Virus record (IMG/VR): IMGVR_UViG_3300002145_000035
Location: 1-46,452 of that record
DNA length: 46,452 bases
Origin: a virus
Direction: 5' to 3' (one strand)
Part shown: in pieces, positions 7,321-11,403 of the stretch
Layout of the letters: each line of letters opens with the position of its first letter
Position numbering within the stretch: the stretch's first letter is position 1
Notes under the pieces: model-generated
Seen by the model: only the letters and a program-made list of their open reading frames with translations
Databases searched by the model: none
What the model was told of the DNA's origin: nothing
Made by a program: the position numbers and the translations under genes

Positions 7321-8436
7321 CTACTCTCCAAAGTCAAATAGGCTATGGAACGTCGTGTCCTGTTTTGTGGACTCGATGTCGTAGTTCAAAACGCCGATGA
7401 GATTATCGATCTTGTTGTCGATGATGACATTTTCCATAGCCGCATCATCGAATGGTAAATCCTTGAACCATTGTGGCAAGCGTAGCTCGTCAGTTGGGTA
7501 GCTAACTGAAGTGAACCCCATTGGATTTGGTTTCAGCTTACAGACGATCGTCTTCATTCCGTCGACGATCTCCTGGCTGTACTTGTCACTGTTCATCCTC
7601 TTGAGTGTGTTCCAGTTTAGTGCAGCACGCACGTGACCGGGCATGTTTGCCTTGCCTTGCTTCTCTTCAAGCGTGCGGAACTTGGTCAAGTTGTTCACAC
7701 GCTTTGGTGTGCCTTTCTCCCAGCCCGGGCGATCCTTGAAGTCTCTCCGGAACTGTTCGATGCGCTCAAGTATCGCTGCTTCGGGCTTGCTAGTGAGCAC
7801 CATGAACAAGATGTCCTTCAAGAAGTCCTGCATGTAAACCGGAGTGTCTGAACGGCGGAGATCAAGGCCCATCGCTTTGACCTTACCTGCTTCGCCATTG
7901 ACATCCTTTCGCTTACCGTCCTCGTCATACACCAGTGCAGCATATCGTTTCTTAGTGATGTAGAGTCCGGATTCTGCGACGATCTCTCGACCTGCCGCAA
8001 TGACATCAGAACGTGACTTCGGACAATGGAATGCCTGTAGCATGAACTTAGGAAAGGTCTTGTTTGCTTCGCCGGCTACTTGATCATATAGCTGTACCAC
8101 ATTTTCCTTGGTCCAAGGAATCTTGCCAGCCATGATTTCTGCTTTGAGTATCGGATATGCCGAGAAGTAGACCGAGTTGTGAACTAGCATGTTGTTTGCA
8201 AAAAACCACGGATGATCTTCGTTTCGCATTCCGATGTCGTATACATCTGTGCCTTGTGTGTTGTCTACAGGCTTAACTTTTTTTACTTTTGTTCTTGACA
8301 GCTTAATTGATTTTTTCGGTTTTTGAGATAAAAGTATTTCTTTAACTTTATGATAATATTTAGAAATATCTTTGTCGTCGCAAGTTAATATCGTCTTTAA
8401 ATTTTTAATTAAGTTAGTTTTATGTTCTTCGTTCAT
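7321..8436 (-). CDS. 43: DNA polymerase gp43, C-terminal part with C-intein
   Basis: The first 87 residues are a C-terminal intein half, ending with the block F and G pattern VYDIGMRNEDHPWFFANN-MLVHN, that is with penultimate His and terminal Asn. The next residue, Ser88, begins the C-extein SVYFSAYP. The remaining 284 residues are the end of a family B polymerase: the strand after motif C, a KKRYAALV motif (the KxY block) and the thumb. Joined to the N-part by trans-splicing it would restore YGDTDSVYFS. ATG 8436 follows directly after the TAA of the N-part in the same frame, with GGTGGA just upstream. The C-terminal FHSLFDFGE resembles the clamp-binding tail of gp43. Confidence 0.88.
   Translation of the reverse strand: MNEEHKTNLIKNLKTILTCDDKDISKYYHKVKEILLSQKPKKSIKLSRTKVKKVKPVDNTQGTDVYDIGMRNEDHPWFFANNMLVHNSVYFSAYPILKAEIMAGKIPWTKENVVQLYDQVAGEANKTFPKFMLQAFHCPKSRSDVIAAGREIVAESGLYITKKRYAALVYDEDGKRKDVNGEAGKVKAMGLDLRRSDTPVYMQDFLKDILFMVLTSKPEAAILERIEQFRRDFKDRPGWEKGTPKRVNNLTKFRTLEEKQGKANMPGHVRAALNWNTLKRMNSDKYSQEIVDGMKTIVCKLKPNPMGFTSVSYPTDELRLPQWFKDLPFDDAAMENVIIDNKIDNLIGVLNYDIESTKQDTTFHSLFDFGE
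8176..8436 (-). other. C-terminal half of split intein (87 aa)
   Basis: It contains the C-terminal splicing blocks (VYDIG...HPWFFANN...LVHN before Ser+1). The first 45 residues are Lys-rich and helical, longer than the 35-50 residues usual for C-inteins, and could be the remnant of a linker or a docking segment for the N-half. The DNA is clearly more AT-rich than the polymerase on either side, a sign of separate origin. Confidence 0.85.
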
Positions 8437-10626
8437 TTATTCCACCATTTTATAATATTCAATTTCTTTAATTTCTATACTAACAAGTATGTCGTTGTCT
8501 TGTATTTCTTGAGGTTTAACTTCGATTAGATCGCCTTGTCTTTCTACCATTATGCTATGATCTTCTGTTACGGTAACAACATTTCCTAGCTCGTCTTCGA
8601 CTTCATAAAGTTGCTTATTTACAGAATGTTTATACACATAATTAATATGTCCGAAATACAGCTCGTCTCGGGTCTTATCGTATGACATTACCATAATATC
8701 AGAATCGAAGCCGTAATGTTTGTCATTAACCGAATCTTTTTGGTTGCATTGATTGTATAACTCTTCTATAGTCATTGGACCTTTTGAAGTTTCAATGATT
8801 GCATCACCTGTTAAACTGTCAGTATCGCCGTAGATGACTGCCCTGCCTATGTGGTTATACTCGCCTGTGATGATCTCATTCACCTTGGCGCTCATGTGCT
8901 TGACGATCTGACGACCGGTAAGCGTAGTTGACTGTCCGATGCGCTTATCAAAGAATCGACAGTGTGGATTTAGGATAGCGCCATATAGCGAGTTGAGGTT
9001 AATCTTCTTGACGAGCTGTCTCTTATCCCAGAACGCGATCTCAGTCTGGTTGCCAGCTTCGATAGCCTTGCGCATCTTGGCTTGCAGTTCTTTACGTTCG
9101 GAGTACCACCGCTTGAGTAGACCAGGAATGACAGCTTCGAACTCATAAGTGAAGATGGTGCCATTGGCACTTAGCATCCAAGGTTGATGGCTATCAAATA
9201 TCATCTGATAGATTTCTGCTGCGCTCATTATCTCTTCGCGGCCGTCCTCCCAATCAATGACGATATCCTTATCGCGCCGCTTCTCCATCACGTATTCGTA
9301 TTCTAGCGTACCGAACTTACCTTCCCATGCCGCAGCAAAAGATTTCTTCTGCAACAGCACCTGATCTTGGATGAAGGGATCAGTGTAGGTTGGACGAAGC
9401 TGACCAACGATTGCCTCTGGCGCCATGTTGAGCGCACGAATGACTGATGGATACAGTGAGTTCAAGTCCATTGATCCGACCCACATATGGACACCCTTCT
9501 TAGGGTACGCCACATATGCTCCGGCAGCGCCTTCGTTGCCATCTGTTTTGATCTTGTTTGGCACGACCATTCCTCGATCGTGTGCTTCGTTGATGATGGC
9601 TTGTTCGGTGACGGCTACTGCGCCCATGCCTGATTGCAGCAAGACAGTGTTAGCATGAGCCAGCTCATTCAGCAGTTCGATGAACTTTAGCTTCTTATCT
9701 AGCTTGTCAAGTAGTGCGACGTCTTGTCGGTTGTACTCAATGAACGTCCGGAAATCGTTGTTGTAGAGCTGATCAAGGGTGCCTTCGTAGACGGTCTTGT
9801 TCTCACCGATCTCAATTTCACCAATCGCGTCAAGGCGGTATGAATGCCTCTCTTCGTAGTTGTATTTCCGATATAGCTCAAGGCTATCAAGGTGTACGCG
9901 ACCTATGAGATCATATGTCTCGGCTTTCTTGCCGAACTTCTCATATTCGCGCTTGCGAGGTAATTGTCCCCATAGGCAGAATCTCCTCGTATCATCCTTG
10001 CTTAGGACTCTTGCTACGCGATTGACTGTATATGGAATATCATAACCTTCGCTGTTCCATCCGGTGATGATGTCTGCATCTTCGATCAAGTCAAGGAATG
10101 CCTTGAGCATGTCGCCTTCGTCAGCGTAAAGGTAGGTGTTTGGAAACTCTTTTACTTGCTCCTCAGCTTCTTCCATCGTGAGTGTCTTTGGAGGAACGGC
10201 AAGCGTGACGAGTGCATCCATCCATTGGAGGTGGACGGTGATGGCAGTGATCGGCATGAACGGATCGCTTGGTTGTGCGAATCCACGTTCTGGATCAAAG
10301 TCAGTCTCGATGTCAAAGAACGCCACATTCAGTGTCGGGGCGTCAATGTTGAGATAGTTCTCGCTCAAGCACTGCGTGACCGGATTGATATCCGATTCAA
10401 AGAGTGTCTTGTCTCTGTTGATGGCAAGTTCCTTGCGGAACTCCTTGGTGCTCTTACAGACGATCCGAGAAACAGGATCACCATATACGCTTCTGTGTTT
10501 ACCGGCTGGATCGGAATGATAGAAAGTATATTTTACCGGATATTCGTGGAATACACGCTTGCCTTCTCTGCGCTCAACTACACGGATTATGTCCGCTTCT
10601 CTGACAAATATTGCATCCACATACAT
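8437..10626 (-). CDS. 43: DNA polymerase gp43, N-terminal part with N-intein
   Basis: Residues 1-603 are the N-extein of a family B replicative polymerase like T4 gp43. They contain exonuclease motif I FFDIETDFD (Asp105, Glu107), exo II in NSEGYDIPY, exo III YNRQDVALL, polymerase motif A MDLNSLYPSVIR, motif B KINLNSLYGAI and the start of motif C, YGDTD. From Ser604 to the stop (126 residues) it is an N-intein half: SLTGDAIIET is block A and VTVTEDHSIM is block B with the TxxH motif. With the C-part the exteins add to 887 residues, against 898 in T4. ATG 10626 follows AAGGA about 12 bases upstream. Confidence 0.9.
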   Translation of the reverse strand: MYVDAIFVREADIIRVVERREGKRVFHEYPVKYTFYHSDPAGKHRSVYGDPVSRIVCKSTKEFRKELAINRDKTLFESDINPVTQCLSENYLNIDAPTLNVAFFDIETDFDPERGFAQPSDPFMPITAITVHLQWMDALVTLAVPPKTLTMEEAEEQVKEFPNTYLYADEGDMLKAFLDLIEDADIITGWNSEGYDIPYTVNRVARVLSKDDTRRFCLWGQLPRKREYEKFGKKAETYDLIGRVHLDSLELYRKYNYEERHSYRLDAIGEIEIGENKTVYEGTLDQLYNNDFRTFIEYNRQDVALLDKLDKKLKFIELLNELAHANTVLLQSGMGAVAVTEQAIINEAHDRGMVVPNKIKTDGNEGAAGAYVAYPKKGVHMWVGSMDLNSLYPSVIRALNMAPEAIVGQLRPTYTDPFIQDQVLLQKKSFAAAWEGKFGTLEYEYVMEKRRDKDIVIDWEDGREEIMSAAEIYQMIFDSHQPWMLSANGTIFTYEFEAVIPGLLKRWYSERKELQAKMRKAIEAGNQTEIAFWDKRQLVKKINLNSLYGAILNPHCRFFDKRIGQSTTLTGRQIVKHMSAKVNEIITGEYNHIGRAVIYGDTDSLTGDAIIETSKGPMTIEELYNQCNQKDSVNDKHYGFDSDIMVMSYDKTRDELYFGHINYVYKHSVNKQLYEVEDELGNVVTVTEDHSIMVERQGDLIEVKPQEIQDNDILVSIEIKEIEYYKMVE
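8440..8817 (-). other. N-terminal half of split intein (126 aa)
   Basis: The half begins with Ser directly after YGDTD in the polymerase active site and includes block A (SLTGDAII) and block B (TEDH). It ends in a TAA at 8439-8437, directly followed in frame by the ATG of the C-half. No endonuclease domain is present in either half. The insertion point is the conserved pol-c position used by several archaeal and viral polymerase inteins. The base composition is AT-rich compared with the exteins. Confidence 0.88.
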
Positions 10627-10689: not shown

Positions 10690-11403
10690 ATGACTAAACA
10701 TTTTAGAACTAAAAATATTAGGTTTCTTAATTGGGTGTCTACTTGTAATGAAGTTCACAATCAAGCATATAATTACTCTGAAGTAATTTACGAAAATCAA
10801 AGGACAAAGGTAAAAATTATATGTCCTTATCATGGATCTTTTCTTCAAAAACCAAAAGATCATAAGATAGGACAAGGATGTCCTGAATGTTCTCATAATT
10901 TTCCTCTTACTGAAAACGAGTTTAAAAAAAGAAGTAGAGAAATGTATAATAATAAATTTACTCTTAATAGTAAGTTTATTGGCATGAAACACCCTGTTAC
11001 TTTAGAATGTGTTAAACACGGTCTCTTTATTTTGTCTTTAGCCGAAACACATTTTAGAAAGAATGGCGGTTGTCCAAAATGTTGGTATAATCTAAGAATA
11101 TCAAATTTAAAGCCAGGAAACGTTTCTAAAAAAGAAAAAGAATGGCTTGACACTTTAAATGTTCCTGTTCGACAAGAAGAAATCAATATTGGCACAAAAA
11201 AGTTCATAGTTGATGGATTTGATCCTACTACTAATACTGTGTATGAGTACAATGGATCATATTGGCACGGAAATCCAAATATATATAAACGAGATGACAT
11301 TAACACTGTTCTTGGGGTTACCTTTGGTGAATTATACCAGAAGACGTTAGAGAGAGAAACTCTCATTAAAAAACATTACAACTTGGTAGTCTTATGGGGA
11401 TAG
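10690..11403 (+). CDS. Free-standing homing endonuclease, zinc-finger plus Vsr-like
   Basis: This 237-residue protein has two zinc-finger-like repeats, Cys45-His48-Cys64-Cys67 and Cys107-His110-Cys128-Cys131 (pattern CPYHG...GCPEC), followed by a nuclease domain with Asp175 in VDGFDP and EYNGSYWHG at 186-194. This matches the Vsr-related (EDxHD) homing endonucleases described with split-intein genes in phage metagenomes. It would cut intein- or insert-free alleles so that repair copies the element. It is antisense to every neighbour, AT-rich (16 G+C in a hand-counted 60 bases at 10741-10800), and sits between the polymerase and dsbA blocks. AGGA lies 9 bases before ATG 10690. Its target is not known. 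Confidence 0.82.
   Translation: MTKHFRTKNIRFLNWVSTCNEVHNQAYNYSEVIYENQRTKVKIICPYHGSFLQKPKDHKIGQGCPECSHNFPLTENEFKKRSREMYNNKFTLNSKFIGMKHPVTLECVKHGLFILSLAETHFRKNGGCPKCWYNLRISNLKPGNVSKKEKEWLDTLNVPVRQEEINIGTKKFIVDGFDPTTNTVYEYNGSYWHGNPNIYKRDDINTVLGVTFGELYQKTLERETLIKKHYNLVVLWG

What the first reader, a model, noticed from the sequence alone, without database searches (positions are those of the whole stretch)
7321..10626. Replicative polymerase split by an intein at the catalytic YGDTDS motif, with only a TAA between the halves
Seen: N-part ends in YGDTD plus a 126-residue N-intein (blocks A, B); C-part has an 87-residue C-intein ending LVHN before SVYFS. The two genes abut in the same frame: TAA then ATG. 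Known: inteins at this pol-c site occur, and split inteins occur in phage replication genes. Inference: polymerase activity needs trans-splicing, so replication is gated by assembly of the halves. An origin from one nonsense codon in an intact mini-intein is possible, because the frame continues.
Basis: partly seen in the sequence, partly recalled or inferred. Interest (0 to 1): 0.72.

Follow-up and report, generated by a model that had tools for sequence, protein, structure and literature searches.

The report
Split polymerase intein lacking its endonuclease
A bacterial virus makes its DNA-copying enzyme as two proteins that carry the halves of a self-splicing intein; relatives show that a selfish DNA-cutting gene once sat between the halves and was deleted, leaving only a short scar and a stop codon.

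Summary
A family B DNA polymerase is split at YGDTD^S by a split intein (126-aa N half, 87-aa C half), and the two genes meet as TAA-ATG in one frame. Inteins of this kind are known: PolB split inteins of Aeromonas, Campylobacter, Tenacibaculum and Pseudomonas jumbo phages, usually 'fractured genes' with a free endonuclease gene between the halves. The Aes123 member splices in vitro, and its crystal structure is the top match of my model. New here is the route. Among 55 representative loci, 35 keep the endonuclease gene, 13 (window included) keep the split but have only remnants or nothing, and 7 are contiguous. The window's junction retains the endonuclease's last codons in another frame (scar reads NIIKWWNK*; relative QILKWWNK*), unique among 92,852 positions. 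Its intein groups with an endonuclease-bearing one (100/98), while its polymerase groups elsewhere, so the intein arrived horizontally. Contiguous relatives that keep the former initiator Met suggest the same process can re-fuse split inteins. Trans-splicing is inferred, not shown; replication 'gating' has no support.

The parts
8818..10626 (-). N-extein of family B DNA polymerase: exonuclease and palm up to YGDTD (603 aa)
   Evidence: Pfam DNA_pol_B_exo1 and DNA_pol_B; PHROG 262 DNA polymerase E 1.2e-145
8440..8817 (-). N-intein, 126 aa, Ser1; net charge -16; the last ~9 residues (EIEYYKMVE) are not intein-homologous but run through the deletion scar
   Evidence: alignment A1, charge, Pfam Intein_splicing
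8433..8459 (-). 27-nt scar of the 3' end of the lost endonuclease gene, overlapping the C-half start codon; reads NIIKWWNK* in the endonuclease frame; contains a GGTGG ribosome-binding-like motif
   Evidence: 22/27 identity to endonuclease 3' ends of L106 and L013, best of 92,852 positions
8437..8439 (-). TAA stop of the N-half gene; the homologous codon is TGA in L013 and L007 and a sense codon in L106 and L108
8176..8436 (-). C-intein, 87 aa: ~43-aa predicted two-helix extension, then ~44-aa C-intein core ending HN
   Evidence: alignment A4; AlphaFold2 model, helices at 130-144 and 152-164 of the read-through intein
7321..8175 (-). C-extein of the polymerase (284 aa), starts SVYFS, ends at TAG
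   Evidence: PHROG 1918 and 262 DNA polymerase

Best explanation
It is a naturally split, Ser1-type PolB intein at YGDTD^S. The two precursor proteins are translated from adjacent genes, the second probably through the GGTGG site and the TAA-ATG junction. The acidic N half and basic C half would associate, fold into one HINT domain and splice, giving an intact polymerase with YGDTDSVYFS. The element descends from a 'fractured gene': N half, free Vsr-like homing endonuclease gene, C half. It invaded this polymerase horizontally and later lost the endonuclease by deletion. The 3' scar persists because the end of that gene overlaps the translation start of the C half. Shown by sequence: the split, the conserved splicing residues, the scar, the endonuclease-bearing sister and the mismatch of intein and extein trees. 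Inferred: splicing activity, translation mode and the order of events.
For: Ser1, TEDH-region T/D/H and other N-half columns are invariant over 14 relatives; the C half has VYDIGM and ends HN, with Ser as the next residue. The model of the joined intein (mean pLDDT 89.6, pTM 0.78) matches best the fused Aes123 PolB1 split intein, 9hth, E 4.2e-13. Net charge is -16 for the N half and +6 for the C half, as in natural split inteins. Full endonuclease genes lie between the halves in most relatives, e.g. L087, L013, L106, L002. The scar identity is unique in the window, and no other of 989 ATGs has a comparable upstream match (18 of 23 against at most 15). Intein sister is L087, split with endonuclease, 100/98; the polymerase's sisters are L014 and L017, and L087's polymerase lies far away. 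Two endonuclease-free relatives (L118, L126) have dN/dS near 0.1 in both halves, so splicing seems still needed.
Against: No experiment or reads. The exact deletion ends cannot be placed, because L087 is too diverged. The scar also carries the ribosome-binding motif, so part of its conservation could be selection rather than descent. No near-identical copy of the window with the endonuclease still present was found.
Confidence: 0.85

Rival explanations
1. One reading: an intact contiguous mini-intein was split by one nonsense codon, and an ATG just downstream took over.
For: The frame is continuous across the TAA; contiguous relatives of the same family exist (L009, L117, L121). A variant survives: the deletion may have fused the halves first and the stop arisen later, since the homologous codon is sense in L106 and L108.
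Against: The intein's sister is split with an endonuclease; an endonuclease scar lies at the junction; the same codon is already a stop in L013, with intact endonuclease, and in L007, with a decaying one.
Confidence: 0.1
2. Sequencing or assembly error: the intein is contiguous and the TAA is false.
For: No reads available; a single-base error could create it; contiguous relatives exist.
Against: L118 shows independently a TAA with a 9-nt gap in the same frame; L007 and L013 have a stop at the homologous codon; a second ATG with a plausible ribosome site follows; the halves have the charge polarity of split inteins.
Confidence: 0.04
3. Programmed read-through of TAA yields mostly a contiguous precursor that splices in cis.
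For: Same frame on both sides of the stop.
Against: TAA followed by A is not a known leaky context (own knowledge); TAA is the commonest stop of this window and no tRNA gene lies in it; no relative shows a conserved read-through signal.
Confidence: 0.03
4. The split polymerase is dead and another polymerase replicates the phage.
For: The window is only 46 kb, probably of a larger genome, so other polymerases cannot be excluded.
Against: Both halves have intact frames and conserved motifs, and related endonuclease-free alleles are under purifying selection.
Confidence: 0.03

Closest known systems
Aes123 PolB1 split intein and other Aeromonas phage gp43 split inteins (PMC11923092; record JN377894)
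   Same: Same host gene and motif, DTD^S insertion, Ser1 and Ser+1, typical split site, HINT fold; free Vsr-like endonuclease in the same slot
   Different: 36% identity in the N half; Aes C half is 39 aa without the helical extension; Aeromonas locus keeps the endonuclease
PA5oct/MIJ3/PAC2 Pseudomonas jumbo phage split PolB intein (PMC6892783)
   Same: Closest among annotated phages: N half about 50%, same site, same long C half with extension
   Different: Keeps a 1.68-kb Hef/HNH-like endonuclease gene between the halves
Fractured genes with split inteins (Dassa et al. 2009, doi 10.1093/nar/gkp095; known to me from memory and from citing papers, full text not held)
   Same: Split intein whose halves flanked a free endonuclease gene of the Vsr-like family
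   Different: Endonuclease gene lost; halves abut
Campylobacter phages CP21 (split, endonuclease), F379 (broken endonuclease frames) and CC_R7 (contiguous)
   Same: The same states seen in cultured phages, CP21 and CC_R7 polymerase genes being about 93% identical in DNA
   Different: Distant intein; no abutting split form among them

Membership tests
Split PolB intein (Aes123 PolB1-like, Ser1 type) | Two separate genes each ending or starting in an intein half, together one HINT domain | tested here: met
Split PolB intein (Aes123 PolB1-like, Ser1 type) | Nucleophile Ser1, block B TxxH, C-terminal HN, Ser or Thr at +1 | tested here: met
Split PolB intein (Aes123 PolB1-like, Ser1 type) | Trans-splicing activity | not testable with these tools
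   shown in the literature for Aes123 and a few others (PMC11923092, PMC12707363), not for this one
Split PolB intein (Aes123 PolB1-like, Ser1 type) | No essential cysteine | tested here: inconclusive
   splice-site residues are Ser; one non-conserved Cys in each half
Fractured gene | Free endonuclease gene between the intein halves | tested here: not met
   gap is 0 nt; only a 27-nt scar of the gene's 3' end; so a descendant of this arrangement, not a member
Homing element (mobile intein) | Own endonuclease able to cleave empty alleles | tested here: not met
   no endonuclease in the intein; the free HEG at 10690-11403 is a different one with unknown target
Homing element (mobile intein) | History of horizontal transfer | tested here: met
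   intein and extein trees disagree

The most novel reading that the evidence does not exclude
Intein splitting is reversible in this family: split inteins of fractured genes repeatedly lose the endonuclease gene, giving abutting split inteins (window, L118) and, where the deletion falls in frame, re-fused contiguous mini-inteins that keep the old initiator Met inside (L121, L009, L159). The window would be a form one step short of re-fusion.
Probability: 0.6. Interest if true: 0.6.

Novelty: new variant of a known kind. Interest (0 to 1): 0.47.

Why it matters
Split inteins are usually thought to arise from contiguous ones (stated in PMC12707363), and the homing-cycle model describes endonuclease decay (PMC3229294). 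This family offers a dense series of intermediate states and at least one very close pair (L121/L123), so the fate of fractured genes and the direction of split-contiguous change can be tested. It also gives a clade of Ser-based split inteins with a conserved helical C-half extension, of possible use in protein ligation.

Tried and rejected
Idea that the free endonuclease at 10690-11403(+) is the displaced partner of the intein: rejected, because it is 61% identical to a separate HEG in the same divergent place upstream of the polymerase in L079/L081, which also have their own endonuclease between the halves. Recoded TAA: rejected by stop usage. Use of L014 as an intein-less sister: withdrawn, since its contig starts with HN-SVYFS, so it carries an intein of unknown arrangement. 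DNA patterns for a second copy of the junction or of the upstream splice site found no near-identical contig; genome contigs gave only ten distant loci, mostly archaeal or bacterial MAGs.

Full report
Observation. The two genes are as described. The N-half gene (8437-10626, minus strand) encodes 603 aa of family B polymerase up to YGDTD and a 126-aa N-intein; the C-half gene (7321-8436) encodes an 87-aa C-intein ending LVHN and 284 aa starting SVYFS. TAA and ATG touch in one frame. One Pfam intein profile spans both halves with a single TAA inside. Intein-less relatives read YGDTDSVYFS or YGDTDSCYFS in one frame.

What it is. The N half has Ser1 and the TEDH motif, conserved over 14 relatives; the C half has VYDIGM and ends in HN before Ser. 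AlphaFold2, reading the TAA as a residue only for the purpose of folding, gives a confident HINT domain (pLDDT 89.6), and the best solved match is the fused Aes123 PolB1 split intein, 9hth (also by sequence). The N half is strongly acidic and the C half basic, the polarity that fits the electrostatically driven association described for natural split inteins (PMC11923092). Trans-splicing is therefore very likely but was not tested.

Relatives. Searches of viral contigs with the C gene, the N half and an alignment of N halves gave 63 distinct N-half sequences, phage records included. They were classified by what lies between the halves. Of 55 representatives with both halves, 35 have an endonuclease gene of about 0.95-2 kb there, 9 a remnant of roughly 100-230 nt, 4 little or nothing (the window, L118, L015, L153, the last with a short remnant), and 7 are contiguous. 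In the remnants it is the 3' end of the endonuclease that survives: in L087, L090, L079 and L106, for example, the C-half start codon overlaps the last codons of the endonuclease, so that end is needed to translate the C half. L106 (full gene) and L108 (remnant) are 92-94% identical in the flanking DNA.

The scar. Read in the endonuclease's frame, the 27 nt ending at the C-half start give NIIKWWNK*, against QILKWWNK* in L106, QILKWWNE* in L013 and RIKQWWIK* in L087. The identity (22, 22 and 20 of 27) is the best of 92,852 positions in the window for each reference, and no other ATG in the window has a similar upstream match. In the polymerase frame this stretch reads KMVE-stop-M; L007 and L013 also have a stop at that codon, L106 and L108 have a sense codon. 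So the stop most likely comes from sequence that once encoded the endonuclease's end, where the change can be silent, not from a nonsense mutation in a working mini-intein. Whether the stop arose before or after the deletion is not settled.

History. On the intein tree the window is sister to L087, split with endonuclease, at 100/98; endonuclease-less and contiguous alleles are scattered next to endonuclease-bearing ones, 19 changes of state in all. Counts on an unrooted tree do not give direction; the direction rests on the remnants and scars. On the polymerase tree the window sits with L014 and L017, far from L087. The intein thus moved between polymerases. The pair L121 (contiguous) and L123 (split with endonuclease), 95.7% identical in the N half, differs by a 1-kb stretch bounded by a GAT repeat, and L121 keeps the last endonuclease codons and the former initiator Met inside its intein; L009 and L159 also keep an internal Met at the former start. 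The Campylobacter phages CP21, F379 and CC_R7 show split, decaying and contiguous states in cultured phages. Two related endonuclease-free inteins (L118, L126) are under purifying selection in both halves.

Function. The best reading is a splicing-competent but immobile split intein, kept because the polymerase it interrupts is needed and precise loss is rare, as in the homing-cycle model (PMC3229294). There is no evidence that the split regulates replication. The clade has a conserved ~35-45-aa helical extension in front of the C-intein core, present in PA5oct-type phages but absent in the 39-aa Aes C half; its role is unknown, an assembly aid being a guess.

Novelty. Split PolB inteins, fractured genes and endonuclease decay are all known. 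The endonuclease-free abutting form with a readable scar, and the series that links it to both fractured and contiguous inteins, was not found in the papers searched, but Dassa et al. 2009 was not available in full, so priority is uncertain.

Noticed in passing
window 10690-11403 (+): Free-standing HEG (DUF723/Vsr-like, zinc-ribbon) divergent to the polymerase; 61% identical to a HEG in the same place in L079/L081/L169/L171. Target unknown.
   Followed up: partly
window 8176-8436; L087, L105, L106, L118, L090, L002: Conserved ~35-45-aa two-helix extension before the C-intein core in this clade of split PolB inteins, also kept in the contiguous L009; function unknown.
   Followed up: partly
L013 and L015: Nearly identical polymerases carry different inteins at sites two codons apart (YGDTD^S and YGD^TDS).
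   Followed up: no
L007 4785-5361: The polymerase N-extein has two further interruptions upstream of the intein, probably introns or other inserts.
   Followed up: no
L014 1-20: Contig of the closest polymerase relative breaks off inside the intein just before HN-SVYFS, as if the locus is polymorphic in the population.
   Followed up: no
L192, L196, L197: Cultured Campylobacter phages CP21, CC_R7 and F379 carry the same PolB intein as split with endonuclease, contiguous, and split with broken endonuclease frames.
   Followed up: partly
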